Assembly (NCBI RefSeq): GCF_019456655.1 | Contig: NZ_CP080332.1 | Coordinates: 744,001-808,000 of the forward strand | Length of the DNA: 64,000 nucleotides | Direction: 5' to 3' | DNA from: Mycolicibacterium diernhoferi | GTDB lineage: Bacteria; Actinomycetota; Actinomycetes; Mycobacteriales; Mycobacteriaceae | In this document: piece by piece, positions 55,994 to 61,016 of the stretch | Layout: every line of letters starts with the position of its first letter | Position numbering within the stretch: position 1 is the stretch's first letter | Made by a program: the position numbers and the translations under genes | The notes under the pieces: generated by a model | The model's input: only the letters and a program-made list of their open reading frames with translations | Told to the model about the DNA's origin: nothing | The model's database searches: none

Positions 55994-56254
55994 ATGTACC
56001 TGCGCGTCGACACCAGCAGCACGCCTCCCTCGGTCGAGGTCGTCGAACCTGACGACTTCACCTCGTTCAAGGTCGTCGTCCTCACCCCGTCACATTCCTG
56101 GGTGGATCCCGCCGACATCGCCGCGCTGGCCGGTCGTGCCGGGGACACCGAATGGGAACACAACCTGACCGGCATGATCGGCTACGCCCGGTCCAAGGGC
56201 TGGCTGGACGAGCGGGGCAGGATTCGCGCGCACGTGGAGGTCCAAGAGCCCTGA
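55994..56254 (+). CDS. Small conserved hypothetical protein
   Basis: This 86-residue acidic protein has FKVVVLTPSHSWVDPADIAAL, EWEHNLTGMIGYARSKGWLD and RIRAHVEV. No signal peptide or named family is recognised. Its stop overlaps the likely CTG start of the MMPL gene, so it may be part of the same operon. Confidence 0.7.
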   Translation: MYLRVDTSSTPPSVEVVEPDDFTSFKVVVLTPSHSWVDPADIAALAGRAGDTEWEHNLTGMIGYARSKGWLDERGRIRAHVEVQEP

Positions 56255-58398
56255 TCCTGGAACGGCTCGCGCGATACGCCATCGCCGCACCGCGGCGGAT
56301 CGTGGCGGTTGCCGCGCTGTTCGCCGTCGCGGCAGCGGTTTTCGGGGTGCCGGTGATCGGGAAACTGTCCGCGGGCGGGTTTGCCGATCCGCAAGCGGAG
56401 TCCACCCGGGCGGCCGAGGTGCTCAGCCGCAGCTTCGATCAGGGCGATATGCAGCTGTTGATCGTGGTGTCGGACCCGGCGGGTGTGATGAGCCCGGCCG
56501 CACGCCGGGTGGGTACCGAGATCGTGACGGGCCTGCGGGAATCCCAGCATGTCGGCGAGGTCAGTTCGGTGTGGACGGTGCCACCGGCGGCCGCGGCGTC
56601 GCTGCGCAGCCGGGACGGTACCGCCGGGCTGATCGTCGCCGGCGTCACCGGCGGGGACAAGCACGCCCAGACCCACGCCGAGGATCTCGTCGACGCCCTG
56701 GTCCATGACCGGGACGGGGTGCGCGTGCAGGCCGGCGGCCAGGCCATGGTGAACACCCAGATCACCGAGCAGTCCCAACGCGACCTGTTGGTGATGGAGT
56801 CGATCGCCATCCCGCTCAGCTTCCTGGTGCTGGTCTGGGTGTTCGGCGGTCTGCTGGCCGCCGCCATCCCGGTGGTGGTCGGGGTGATGGCGATCCTGGC
56901 TTCGCTGGCGGTGCTGCGGCTCATCACCATGGCCACCGACGTGTCGGTGTTCGCCCTGAACCTGTGCATGGCAATGGGTCTGGCGTTGGCCATCGATTAC
57001 ACCCTGCTGATGATCAGCCGGTATCGCGACGAGCTCGCCGAGGGTGCCGCCGCCGAGGACGCCCTGGTACGCACCATGATGACCGCGGGACGCACGGTGG
57101 TGTTCTCGGCGACGACGGTGGCGCTGCCGATGTCCACCCTGGTGCTGTTCCCGATGTACTTCCTCAAATCGTTCGCCTACGCCGGGGTGGCCACCGTGGT
57201 GTTCGCGGCGATCGCCGCGCTGGTGCTCGCCCCCGCGGTCATGGTGCTGCTCGGCGACCGGATCGGTCACCGGCGTGGCAATGCGGCCAAGCCGGTCACC
57301 CAACAGTTCTGGTACCGCTCAACAAAGTTCGTGCTCCGTCGGGCGGCCGCGATGGGCGCGGCCGTGGTGCTGCTGCTGGTTTTGCTGGGCTTGCCGTTCA
57401 CCGGCGTGAAATGGGGGTTTCCCGACGATCGGGTGTTGCCGGCCTCGGCCTCGGCACATCAGGTGGGCGACCGGCTGCGACAGGACTTCGCGCACGACGC
57501 GGCCACCGATATCAGCATCGTCATCTCCGATGCCGACGGGGTGAGCCCGGCCGATCTGGACCGCTTCATCACCGAAGTGGGTTCCGTCGACGATGTTTCG
57601 GCGGTGTCCCCGCCGGTGGAACGTGACGGCGCCATGTTCCTGAGAGTGTCCAGTACCGCGCCGCTGTTCTCCGATGCGTCCGCGGCGCAACTGGACCGGT
57701 TGCACGAACTGGCCGGTCCGGGAGGACGGCAGGTCTACCTGGGTGGGGTGGCGCAGACCGACCGCGACAGTGTCGACGCCGTCGCCGGCACCCTGCCGCT
57801 CGTGCTCGGTCTGATCGCCGCCATCACGTTCTTCCTGCTGTTCCTGCTCACCGGCAGCGTGCTGCTGCCGGTGAAGGCGATCGTGCTCAACATCCTGTCG
57901 CTGTCCGCCGCGTTCGGCGCGATGGTGTGGATCTTCCAGGACGGCCATCTCGGCGCACTGGGCACGACACCCACCGGCACGCTGGTCGCCAACATCCCGG
58001 TGTTGCTGTTCTGCATCGCCTTCGGACTGTCCATGGATTACGAGGTGTTCCTCCTGTCCCGGATCCGGGAGTACTGGCTGGCATCCGGACGCACCGCCGC
58101 CGACGTCGGCGAGAGCGTGGCCTTGGGCCTGGCGCGCACCGGCCGCGTGGTAACCGCTGCCGCACTGGTGATGTCGATATCGTTCGCCGCGCTGATCGCG
58201 GCCAACGTGTCCTTCATGCGGATGTTCGGGCTGGGCCTGACACTGGCGGTGCTGATGGACGCCACCCTGGTGCGGATGGTGCTAGTCCCGGCCTTCATGA
58301 AACTGATGGGCCGCTGGAACTGGTGGGCGCCGGCGCCGCTGGCCCGGCTGCACGACCGCATCGGATTCGTCGATGAGCCGTTGAACCGGAAGGCGTAG
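56251..58398 (+). CDS. MMPL family transporter, probable CTG start
   Basis: The 715-residue protein has 12 predicted membrane segments and two external loops. Signature segments are AMGLALAIDYTLLMISRYRDEL and FGLSMDYEVFLLSRIREYW, with the proton-relay Asp-Tyr pairs in both halves. The family N-terminus (LERLARYAIAAPRRIVAV) begins right at 56251, where the only in-frame codon is CTG, overlapping the previous TGA as CTGA, with GGAGG 10 bases upstream. The next ATG upstream (56152) would add a non-homologous 33-residue lead. It is next to the polyketide genes and probably exports their product. Confidence 0.88.
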   Translation: MILERLARYAIAAPRRIVAVAALFAVAAAVFGVPVIGKLSAGGFADPQAESTRAAEVLSRSFDQGDMQLLIVVSDPAGVMSPAARRVGTEIVTGLRESQHVGEVSSVWTVPPAAAASLRSRDGTAGLIVAGVTGGDKHAQTHAEDLVDALVHDRDGVRVQAGGQAMVNTQITEQSQRDLLVMESIAIPLSFLVLVWVFGGLLAAAIPVVVGVMAILASLAVLRLITMATDVSVFALNLCMAMGLALAIDYTLLMISRYRDELAEGAAAEDALVRTMMTAGRTVVFSATTVALPMSTLVLFPMYFLKSFAYAGVATVVFAAIAALVLAPAVMVLLGDRIGHRRGNAAKPVTQQFWYRSTKFVLRRAAAMGAAVVLLLVLLGLPFTGVKWGFPDDRVLPASASAHQVGDRLRQDFAHDAATDISIVISDADGVSPADLDRFITEVGSVDDVSAVSPPVERDGAMFLRVSSTAPLFSDASAAQLDRLHELAGPGGRQVYLGGVAQTDRDSVDAVAGTLPLVLGLIAAITFFLLFLLTGSVLLPVKAIVLNILSLSAAFGAMVWIFQDGHLGALGTTPTGTLVANIPVLLFCIAFGLSMDYEVFLLSRIREYWLASGRTAADVGESVALGLARTGRVVTAAALVMSISFAALIAANVSFMRMFGLGLTLAVLMDATLVRMVLVPAFMKLMGRWNWWAPAPLARLHDRIGFVDEPLNRKA

Positions 58399-58415
58399 CG
58401 CTCCGTATTCAGGGT

Positions 58416-59508: not shown

Positions 59509-60003
59509 ATGAGAGGTTTTCTCGCACTGGTCGTGCTGGTCGCCGTCGAACGCGTCGCCGAACTGGTGGTGTCCCAACGGAACCTGGCGTGGAGCACAGC
59601 CAACGGGGGCAAGGAGTACGGGGCCGGACACTATCCGGTGATGGTGGCCCTGCACACCGGGCTGCTGGCCGGTGCGGTGCTCGAAGCCCGGTCGCGCCGG
59701 CGCTTCGTCTGGCCGGCGTTCTGGGTGGTGGCGGCGGCACAGGTGCTGCGCTGGTGGTGCATCGGCACGCTGGGAAAGCAGTGGAACACCCGGGTGGTGG
59801 TGGTACCGGGCGCGCAGCGCGTGGTGGGCGGACCGTACCGCGTTGTGCCGCACCCGAACTACGTGGCCGTCGTGCTCGAGGGTGCGGCGCTGCCCTTGGC
59901 CGGGGGCGCCTGGATCACCGCGGCGGTGTTCTCGGTGGCCAACGCGCTGCTGCTGCGGACCCGCATCCGGGTCGAGAACGAAGCCCTGACGAGCTTGACG
60001 TGA
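59509..60003 (+). CDS. ICMT-type integral membrane methyltransferase
   Basis: The 164-residue protein has four to five membrane segments. It shows ERVAELVVSQRNLAWS near the start and the SAM-binding segment QWNTRVVVVPGAQRVVGGPYRVVPHPNYVAVVLEG, which holds the family's GPYRxxRHPxY signature with V-P for the usual R. In type III PKS clusters such proteins O-methylate alkylpyrones or alkylresorcinols (BpsB and SrsB, as I recall). The gap to the PKS gene is 4 bases and the next gene overlaps its stop. Confidence 0.9.
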   Translation: MRGFLALVVLVAVERVAELVVSQRNLAWSTANGGKEYGAGHYPVMVALHTGLLAGAVLEARSRRRFVWPAFWVVAAAQVLRWWCIGTLGKQWNTRVVVVPGAQRVVGGPYRVVPHPNYVAVVLEGAALPLAGGAWITAAVFSVANALLLRTRIRVENEALTSLT

Positions 60004-61016
60004 TCGATCTACTGGTGGCCGGGGGCGGGCCCGCGGGCCTGGCCACCGCCGTGCATGCCGCACGGGCCGGGCTGGAGGTCGTGGTCGTCGAGCACCGCCG
60101 CGGCCCCATCGACAAGGCCTGCGGCGAGGGCCTGATGCCGCACTCCCTGGCGCACCTGGAACGGCTCGGCGTGCGACCCGAGGGCCGGTCATTTCACGGC
60201 ATCCGTTACCTGGACGGCCGGTGCACCGCCGAGGCCCGCTTCACCGCTGGACCCGGCCGCGGGGTGCGCCGCACGGTGCTGCACGCCGCGCTGGCCGATG
60301 CCGCCGCCGATGCCGGTGTCCGGGTGGTGCACGGTGCGGTCGGCGAGGTGACCCAGGATTCGACATCGGTGTGCGCGGCCGGATTTCGGGCCCGTTACCT
60401 GGCGGCGGCCGACGGTCTGCATTCACCGATCCGCCGTGCGCTGGGCCTGGCAGCCGACGAGACGGCTCGCCGGCGGTGGGGTATCCGGAGACACATCCAG
60501 ATCGCGCCGTGGTCGGACTGCGTCGAGGTCTACTGGGGCCGCAACACCGAGGCCTACGTCACCCCGGTGTCCGATGACTGCGTGGGCGTGGCCATCCTGA
60601 AATCCACCAGGGGCGGATTCGAGGAACATCTGCACCAGTTTCCCGGACTCATGGACCGGCTGCACGGCGTGGCGCACGGAGCGGACCGGGCCGCCGGGCC
60701 GCTGCGGCAGAAGGTCCGCCACCGCACCGCCGGCCGGGTCCTGCTGGTCGGCGATGCCGCGGGCTACGTCGACGCCCTGACCGGCGAGGGGATGGGTCTG
60801 GCGTTCGGCGCGGCCGAACTGTTGGTGGAATGTGTCGCGACCGGTTGCACCGGCGACTATGACCGCCGGTGGCGCGCGTTGACCCGGCGGTACCGGTGGC
60901 TGACCGCAGCGCTGTTGCACGCCAGCGGAATCCGTCCGGTGCGGACCGCCCTCACCCCGGCGTCGGCGGCGCTGCCGTCGGTGTTCACCCGGGTGGTCAA
61001 CGCCCTCGGCGAATAG
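60000..61016 (+). CDS. FAD-dependent monooxygenase/reductase (geranylgeranyl-reductase-like)
   Basis: The 338-residue flavoprotein has LLVAGGGPAGLATAVHAARAG (Rossmann FAD motif), DKACGEGLMPHSLAHLERLG, the YLAAADGLHSPIRRALG segment (DG fingerprint) and RVLLVGDAAGYVDALTGEGMGLAFG (second FAD motif). CGEGLMP is typical of the geranylgeranyl reductase and related PKS-tailoring group. In srsABC-type clusters the matching enzyme hydroxylates the alkylresorcinol ring, leading to a quinone. The GTG start overlaps the methyltransferase stop. Confidence 0.88.
   Translation: MIDLLVAGGGPAGLATAVHAARAGLEVVVVEHRRGPIDKACGEGLMPHSLAHLERLGVRPEGRSFHGIRYLDGRCTAEARFTAGPGRGVRRTVLHAALADAAADAGVRVVHGAVGEVTQDSTSVCAAGFRARYLAAADGLHSPIRRALGLAADETARRRWGIRRHIQIAPWSDCVEVYWGRNTEAYVTPVSDDCVGVAILKSTRGGFEEHLHQFPGLMDRLHGVAHGADRAAGPLRQKVRHRTAGRVLLVGDAAGYVDALTGEGMGLAFGAAELLVECVATGCTGDYDRRWRALTRRYRWLTAALLHASGIRPVRTALTPASAALPSVFTRVVNALGE

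What the first reader, a model, noticed from the sequence alone, without database searches (positions are those of the whole stretch)
56251..61016. Compact type III polyketide operon with methyltransferase, flavoprotein and MMPL exporter
Seen: four consecutive same-strand genes (MMPL transporter, type III PKS with intact Cys148-His286-Asn319, ICMT-type methyltransferase, FAD oxidoreductase), with gaps of 17 and 4 bases and one 4-base overlap. Known: PKS-methyltransferase-flavoprotein order is that of srsABC of Streptomyces griseus (alkylresorcinol, methyl ether, quinone), and the type III PKS plus ICMT-family pair is known from Bacillus bps. Inferred: this strain makes a methylated phenolic lipid, quinone or alkylpyrone, and the MMPL protein places it in the cell envelope. 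The linked MMPL exporter would be the new element.
Basis: partly seen in the sequence, partly recalled or inferred. Interest (0 to 1): 0.75.

Follow-up and report, generated by a model that had tools for sequence, protein, structure and literature searches.

The report
Polyketide-quinone genes with linked MmpL13-like transporter
A mycobacterium carries the known genes for an unusual respiratory quinone next to a membrane transporter gene, and comparison with relatives suggests that this transporter family belongs to the quinone pathway and its stress switch.

Summary
The four genes are there. PKS, ICMT-type methyltransferase and flavoprotein are a known kind of operon: the polyketide-quinone (pkqABC/srsABC) trio, beside an M28 peptidase gene as in the closest held kin of M. 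smegmatis. That part is not new.

The MMPL gene is the interesting part. In this window it is not simply the first gene of one operon: a SigL-like promoter for the trio lies inside the 3' end of MMPL, 32 of 75 related loci with enough flank lack MMPL, and the MMPL start region seen in relatives is missing here.

Wider comparison still ties MMPL to the pathway. PKS-linked MMPLs form one clade (55 of 57 members linked; one ends at a contig edge, one is unlinked). Of 106 MMPL matches, 36 lie within 20 kb of an ICMT homologue, about 1 expected. The promoter element recurs before PKS genes, linked MMPLs, stand-alone mmpL13-type genes and this genome's sigL. A published M. avium paratuberculosis array shows mmpL13 rising with the trio and sigL.

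Best reading: an MmpL13-like transporter moving a SigL-induced methoxy-alkylphenol or quinone outward. Biosynthesis is well supported by homology; transport is inferred.

The parts
58416..59504 (+). type III polyketide synthase (pkqA-type, Pks10/Pks11 side of the tree), 362 aa
   Evidence: Pfam PF00195/PF02797; best solved relative Pks11 4JAO, E 2.8e-151; triad C148/H286/N319; tree
59509..60003 (+). ICMT-type (membrane) methyltransferase, 164 aa
   Evidence: PF04140 E 1.7e-24; follows PKS in 80 of 80 named loci
60000..61016 (+). FAD-dependent oxidoreductase, 338 aa, overlaps the methyltransferase gene by 4 bases
   Evidence: PF01494 E 5.7e-16; geranylgeranyl-reductase/UbiH-like NCBIfam models, all below their cut-offs; present in 78 of 80 named loci
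56251..58398 (+). MMPL transporter, about 715 aa, about 12 predicted TM segments, mmpL13-related; true start uncertain (CTG at 56251, ATG at 56152)
   Evidence: PF03176 E 3.2e-78; Asp-Tyr pairs in AIDYT (from 247) and SMDYE (from 594), dN/dS 0.14-0.17; trees
58382..58408 (+). SigL-like promoter TGAACC-N16-CGTAT inside the 3' end of MMPL, 34 bases before the PKS ATG
   Evidence: only strict hit in the 64-kb window; relaxed element upstream of 28 of 29 close PKS genes and of 9 of 9 PKS genes in a further set that partly repeats the same species
55994..56254 (+). 86-aa ORF of unknown family, overlapped by the MMPL reading frame; probably belongs to the locus rather than the pathway
   Evidence: no Pfam or NCBIfam match; 69-75% identical copies in five loci
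53074..55985 (+). two M28 peptidases with PA domains: neighbourhood shared with M. smegmatis kin, not part of the pathway
   Evidence: PF04389/PF02225; near the trio in 25 of 75 named loci

Best explanation
The locus makes and handles a type III polyketide quinone. The PKS extends a long acyl-CoA into an alkylresorcinol-type ring, the ICMT-type enzyme O-methylates it, and the FAD enzyme hydroxylates or oxidises it to a methoxy-alkylbenzoquinol/quinone, as described for M. smegmatis pkqABC and Streptomyces. The trio is probably transcribed from a SigL-type stress promoter inside the end of the MMPL gene, with a start of transcription expected within about two bases of the PKS ATG (leaderless or nearly so). 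The MMPL protein is an RND transporter, presumably proton-driven, from a clade found almost only beside such PKS genes. It most likely moves the lipid product or its methoxyphenol precursor across the plasma membrane toward the outer envelope. Where the linked MMPL is missing, a related stand-alone mmpL13-type gene with the same promoter element may do this job. Shown by sequence: gene content, clade, linkage, shared promoter element. Inferred: product, sigma factor identity, transport and its substrate.
For: Gene families and catalytic residues. Papers, passages only: M. smegmatis PKS (MSMEG_0808), methyltransferase and oxidoreductase make polyketide quinones (PMC8730385; PMC5916927; PMC9927152). 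The two genomes whose MmpL3 stretch is nearest to that of M. smegmatis (98%) each have one PKS match of this clade (81-82% identity) with an M28 gene upstream. Promoter element within 250 bp upstream: 109 of 217 PKS and MMPL genes against 0 of 217 (pattern reversed) and 5 of 217 (opposite strand). Stand-alone mmpL13-type genes: 15 of 26 and 8 of 9 in further genomes. This genome's stand-alone copy and its sigL carry it; SigL identified by PDB 6DV9, E 1.8e-76. 36 of 106 MMPL matches within 20 kb of an ICMT homologue, about 1.1 expected. Linked clade: 55 of 57 members linked in a tree of 122, SH-aLRT 96. In M. avium paratuberculosis the trio genes rose 9.0, 7.9 and 4.9-fold, mmpL13 3.7-fold and sigL 2.6-fold together (PMC2806251 Table 1, passages).
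Against: In the window the MMPL gene has no such promoter element upstream, and the start region of relatives is missing. 32 of 75 loci with enough flank have the trio without MMPL. One member of the linked clade (L338, G033) is in a genome with no PKS match and no ICMT match at E 1e-15. The window's -10 reads CGTAT, with A where SigL is most specific for G (PMC6372665 passages); G occurs in 5 of 28 close PKS promoters. 11 of 26 stand-alone genes lack the element, and 5 of 40 other MMPL upstream regions have it, two of them paralogues of 64% identity or less. The pattern was first spotted in part of the same data. No substrate of an MmpL13-type protein was named in the passages I read. PkQ is reported as an electron carrier, which would not obviously need export.
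Confidence: 0.55

Rival explanations
1. The trio makes the polyketide quinone, but MMPL is only a neighbour or regulon partner that exports another envelope lipid under the same stress response.
For: SigL is reported to act on several lipid and redox genes (PMC13002591 passages). The trio is reported to work in M. smegmatis, whose closest held kin have no MMPL beside it. The stand-alone mmpL13-type gene of this genome lies beside racemase- and SDR-like genes (named by eye), not the trio. One linked-clade member occurs without any PKS match (L338).
Against: 55 of 57 members of the linked clade lie beside a PKS or ICMT. MMPL lies between two PKS modules in L038, L039, L119, L120 and L122 and beside an ICMT-FAD pair without PKS in L214.
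Confidence: 0.3
2. In this particular strain the MMPL gene is poorly or not translated because its start region was lost; only the trio is active.
For: No usual start codon at the conserved place; CTG, an overlapping upstream ATG or a truncating GTG would be needed. The stand-alone copy has the element and an open frame.
Against: dN/dS of the window MMPL against three relatives is 0.14-0.17, close to that between relatives (0.13-0.15); the frame is open throughout, with both Asp-Tyr pairs.
Confidence: 0.25
3. The trio's product is an alkylpyrone or plain alkylresorcinol methyl ether (Pks11- or Bacillus bps-like), not a quinone.
For: The closest solved relative is Pks11, named an alpha-pyrone synthase in the PDB, and Pks11 nests among MMPL-linked PKSs.
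Against: The flavoprotein is kept in 78 of 80 named loci, the srs/pkq arrangement; the 12 Pks11-type rows of the tree have no ICMT or FAD match beside them.
Confidence: 0.2

Closest known systems
pkqABC (MSMEG_0808 onward) of Mycobacterium smegmatis, polyketide quinones
   Same: PKS, ICMT-type methyltransferase, FAD enzyme in the same order; in the two nearest held kin PKS 81-82% identical, M28 gene upstream, same promoter element
   Different: no MMPL gene beside the trio in those kin; here one lies directly upstream. M. smegmatis itself was not identified among the held genomes
srsABC of Streptomyces griseus; PkQ cluster of Streptomyces MNU77
   Same: same three activities and order (PMC9927152 passages; srs gene order recalled)
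   Different: 'MMPL' and 'transporter' do not occur in that paper's text; not compared by sequence here
MmpL13 (Rv1145/Rv1146; MAP2635c)
   Same: nearest relatives outside the linked clade are stand-alone genes, including some in the mmpL13 neighbourhood (gene order recalled); 65-70% identity to this genome's own stand-alone copy
   Different: window MMPL belongs to the PKS-linked clade and has about 36 residues after the last predicted TM segment
SigL regulon of M. tuberculosis (sigL, pks10, Rv1139c-Rv1138c)
   Same: type III PKS and methyltransferase/oxidoreductase targets; sigL-rslA present in this genome with the element upstream
   Different: base at the strongest -10 position differs in the window; mmpL13 was not named as a SigL target in the passages read
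Pks10/Pks11 2x type III cluster
   Same: same part of the PKS tree
   Different: no ICMT or FAD match beside the PKS in the 12 loci seen; described as flanking type I PKS genes (PMC5916927 passages)

Membership tests
srs/pkq-type polyketide quinone operon | type III PKS with Cys-His-Asn triad | tested here: met
   C148, H286, N319
srs/pkq-type polyketide quinone operon | methyltransferase then flavoprotein directly downstream, same strand | tested here: met
   in relatives 80 of 80 and 78 of 80 named loci
srs/pkq-type polyketide quinone operon | resorcinol-type Trp at ArsB position 281 (PMC9927152 passages) | tested here: inconclusive
   Trp283 precedes VSHPGG; not aligned to ArsB
srs/pkq-type polyketide quinone operon | product is a methoxy-alkylbenzoquinone | not testable with these tools
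   needs lipid analysis
MmpL13 / MmpL cluster II | MMPL domain, Asp-Tyr pairs in TM4 and TM10 | tested here: met
   two D-Y pairs in predicted TM segments aligned with those of MmpL3
MmpL13 / MmpL cluster II | substantial C-terminal cytoplasmic domain (PMC6463170, PMC10171966 passages) | tested here: not met
   715 aa, last predicted TM ends at 679; so not filed as cluster II or as MmpL13 itself
MmpL13 / MmpL cluster II | groups with the stand-alone mmpL13-type genes | tested here: not met
   separate linked clade, SH-aLRT 96
SigL regulon | TGAACC at -35 (recalled) and CG-T at -14 to -12 | tested here: met
   58382-58408; -10 from PMC6372665 passages
SigL regulon | G at -11, the strongest position (PMC6372665) | tested here: not met
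   A in the window; G in 5 of 28 close PKS promoters
SigL regulon | transcription depends on SigL | not testable with these tools
   needs sigL deletion and RNA

The most novel reading that the evidence does not exclude
The MmpL13 family, with no substrate named in what I read, is the dedicated, SigL-switched lipid transporter of type III polyketide quinones. It lets mycobacteria place a respiratory or redox-active quinone in the outer envelope under hypoxic or envelope stress. Mtb's split mmpL13 and its Rv1139c-Rv1138c pair would be leftovers of the same system.
Probability: 0.3. Interest if true: 0.8.

Novelty: new variant of a known kind. Interest (0 to 1): 0.55.

Why it matters
MmpL proteins carry many of the lipids that define the mycobacterial envelope, and no substrate was named for MmpL13 in the review passages I read (PMC6463170, PMC10171966). 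Linking its family to SigL and to polyketide-quinone genes gives a concrete substrate class and inducing condition to test, and raises the question whether a quinone known as an electron carrier is also exported.

Tried and rejected
One simple four-gene operon: rejected for this window because of the promoter inside MMPL and the trio loci without MMPL.

Own second type III PKS (G000:C1:5359963-5361009) as the pkqA orthologue: rejected; it lies in another clade with ICMT but no FAD match.

The 86-aa ORF as a pathway gene: unsupported; it stays at the locus when MMPL is gone (L096, L101).

Structure prediction, the search for homologous proteins, viral-contig scans and Rfam were not used.

Rows dropped or limits of counts; upstream regions under 200 bases and duplicates were dropped. 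One search scored at most 14 candidates per genome. The second Fisher test left out L296-L306 (3 of 11 with the element). The line 'PKS-linked 64, 26' holds duplicates; by subtraction it is 17 of 51. In the trees, 15 of the 70 unlinked matches are not included, some of them partial and up to 71% identical. The 80 named loci are the best 80 of 468 relatives, not a random sample; three rows (L320, L321, L336) were translated in a wrong frame and the linked group broke up; one search repeats it with the right strand and replaces it. The one-clade test begun did not finish.
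Full report
What is there. The window is G000:C1:744001-808000 of a 6.0-Mb single-contig genome, by its relatives a mycobacterium. On the + strand lie two M28 peptidases, an 86-aa ORF, MMPL, type III PKS, ICMT-type methyltransferase and FAD enzyme. The MMPL start at 56251 is CTG. In four related loci looked at (L093, L094, L095, L117) an N terminus that can start at GTG lies in an intergenic stretch that is missing here, so the MMPL frame now overlaps the 86-aa ORF. 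The gene still looks selected: dN/dS 0.14-0.17 against three relatives, about 12 predicted TM segments, and both Asp-Tyr pairs.

The trio is known. M. smegmatis is reported to have a PKS-methyltransferase-oxidoreductase cluster (MSMEG_0808 onward) making polyketide quinones that aid anaerobic respiration in biofilms (PMC8730385 passages; PMC5916927 passages), and a Streptomyces cluster of the same order makes 5-methoxy-2-methyl-3-alkylbenzene-1,4-diols (PMC9927152 passages). The primary paper (Anand 2015) is not held and was not read. M. smegmatis itself was not identified among the held genomes. The two genomes whose MmpL3 stretch is 98% identical to a PDB chain (its M. smegmatis origin recalled; 396 genomes searched) each have one PKS match at E 1e-60, with M28b upstream and ICMT-FAD downstream. 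M. smegmatis is described as having a sole type III PKS. I therefore take the window trio as the pkqABC orthologue. PMC5916927 calls the M. marinum mmar_4313 cluster orthologous to it; in my tree the slow-grower-like trio (L080, L082-L086) is in a different PKS clade from those kin, though M. marinum itself was not examined.

How the block varies. Of the 80 best named relatives (of 468), ICMT follows the PKS in 80 and FAD in 78. Of 75 with at least 2.7 kb upstream, MMPL precedes the PKS on the same strand in 43: 4 of 25 in the M28 context and 39 of 50 elsewhere (one of the 43, L148, has only broken MMPL matches). In L096, L097 and other M28-context loci the trio has no MMPL match beside it. 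In L119, L120 and L122 (and unnamed L038, L039) MMPL lies between two PKS-ICMT modules; in L081 it follows a PKS-ICMT pair alone. In L205-L212 a PKS-ICMT pair (52-54% PKS identity; FAD match in six of the eight) and an mmpL13-type gene point apart, about 5-9 kb from each other. In L214 the mmpL13-type gene is 0.2 kb from an ICMT-FAD pair, and sigL-rslA homologues follow within 3 kb.

Is the association more than chance? Of 106 MMPL matches at 50% identity or more in 46 genomes, 36 lie within 20 kb and 22 within 3.5 kb of one of 68 ICMT homologues, against about 1.1 and 0.2 expected from even placement. In a tree of 82 MMPLs the 55 linked members form one clade (SH-aLRT 96). Because that tree held few unlinked genes, I added 40: the clade stays (SH-aLRT 96) with 57 members, of which 55 are linked, one (L345) ends 0.3 kb from a contig edge, and one (L338, genome G033) is unlinked in a genome without a PKS match or ICMT match at E 1e-15; its upstream region (L298) has the promoter element. 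The other 38 added genes and the 27 stand-alone genes fall outside. Both trees are quick searches without bootstrap. The stand-alone copy of this genome (L203, 65-70% identity) lies next to racemase- and SDR-like genes, the mmpL13 neighbourhood (genes named by eye, Mtb order recalled).

The promoter. Upstream of PKS genes a conserved element, TGAACC-N16-CGT, was seen first by eye. With the pattern TGAAC[CT]-N15-17-CGT in 250 bp upstream it occurs in 28 of 29 PKS genes at 80% identity or more, 13 of 29 at 69-80%, 23 of 54 at 60-69%, 13 of 27 below 60%, and 32 of 78 MMPL genes (15 of 26 stand-alone, 17 of 51 linked, 0 of 1 distant paralogue); the reversed pattern occurs in 0 of 217 and the opposite strand in 5 of 217 (Fisher 6e-34, which ignores relatedness). 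The stand-alone genes were not among those in which the pattern was found, so they are a fair test. So are the stand-alone genes of nine further genomes: 8 of 9, mostly about 105 bases upstream. The PKS genes of those nine also have it (9 of 9), but several read the same as named loci already seen (L256 as L103, L257 as L105, L259 as L107), so they add little. A tenth MMPL gene there (L275, 56% identity) lacks it. Other MMPL upstream regions: 5 of 40. In the own genome the strict form occurs 13 times (reversed control 2): among them before the PKS, before the stand-alone mmpL13-type gene, and just after sigL-rslA. By eye five of the 13 sit suitably before an ORF. SigL and RslA were identified by their solved Mtb relatives (6DV9, E 1.8e-76; 3HUG, E 3.7e-18), and sigL has the relaxed element upstream.

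Is it SigL? For: Mtb SigL-dependent promoters include those of sigL, pks10 and Rv1139c (PMC6372665 passages; PMC13002591 passages), and CG before a T at -12 is preferred. The -35 TGAACC is recalled. Against: SigL is most specific for G at -11; the window has A, and G is found in 5 of 28 close PKS promoters, but in 25 of 37 and 9 of 13 of the more distant ones and 8 of 15 of the stand-alone mmpL13-type ones. Another ECF sigma factor is possible for the window clade. Counting from the -10, transcription would start within about two bases of the PKS ATG (my count).

Expression in print. In M. avium paratuberculosis treated with a rhodanine, MAP2642-2644 (chalcone synthase, methyltransferase/Rv1139c, oxidoreductase/Rv1138c) rose 9.0, 7.9 and 4.9-fold, MAP2635c mmpL13 3.7-fold, MAP2634c 2.8-fold and sigL 2.6-fold on day 1 (PMC2806251 Table 1, passages). 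The authors link MAP2642-2644 to SigL; in the passages read they do not link mmpL13 to it. Searches for mmpL13 with polyketide synthase or Rv1147 (25 papers, 20 listed, four opened in passages), mmpL with type III polyketide (3 papers; PMC10619280 opened, where the term is in a reference) and sigL, mmpL13 and polyketide quinone (3 papers; PMC2806251 and PMC4779234 opened in passages) gave no paper that I saw making this link. The library holds open-licence PMC papers only, and most listed papers were not opened.

Evolution. In a tree of 83 PKSs, Mtb Pks11 and 12 pks10/11-type genes nest among MMPL-linked PKSs (supports 100/95 and 100/96), while this genome's second PKS falls in another clade. 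MMPL presence needs several changes on that tree, so it was probably lost more than once.

Mechanism. Shown: gene content, residues, clade, linkage, shared element. Established for relatives in print: ring formation, methylation and oxidation to a quinone. Inferred: that MMPL moves this product outward, using the proton gradient through the Asp-Tyr pairs as in MmpL3. The inference is testable and uncertain, the main doubt being that an electron carrier in the plasma membrane does not plainly need an exporter.

Noticed in passing
55994-56254: 86-aa ORF without known family, conserved after the M28 pair in five related loci, kept where MMPL is lost.
   Followed up: partly
L214 (G016:C1:608000-625000): mmpL13-type gene, ICMT-FAD pair and sigL-rslA homologues lie within about 5 kb, with a second sigL/rslA-like pair; each sigL-like gene has the TGAACC...CGT element upstream.
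   Followed up: partly
L133, L143, L146, L160, L163: Two further ORFs between MMPL and PKS: an O-methyltransferase on the other strand (PF01596 match run for L160 and L163) and a membrane-like protein of about 265 aa without Pfam match (run for L160).
   Followed up: partly
G277 (L260): PKS gene of one genome carries an in-frame stop while MMPL, ICMT and FAD matches are kept.
   Followed up: no
G000:C1:5359963-5361009 (L033): Second type III PKS with an ICMT gene but no flavoprotein match in the same genome; product unknown.
   Followed up: partly
L093, L094, L095, L117 upstream of MMPL: A conserved stretch just before the MMPL start, unlike the SigL element; possible separate promoter of MMPL in this clade, missing in the window.
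   Followed up: no
L338 and L298 (G033:C56:20853-23463): A linked-clade MMPL with the promoter element upstream in a genome without any PKS match at E 0.001: either a leftover of a lost cluster or a different job.
   Followed up: no
L102 and L106 between M28b and PKS: About 2.2 kb without an MMPL match lies between M28b and the PKS, the size of a missing or replaced MMPL gene.
   Followed up: no
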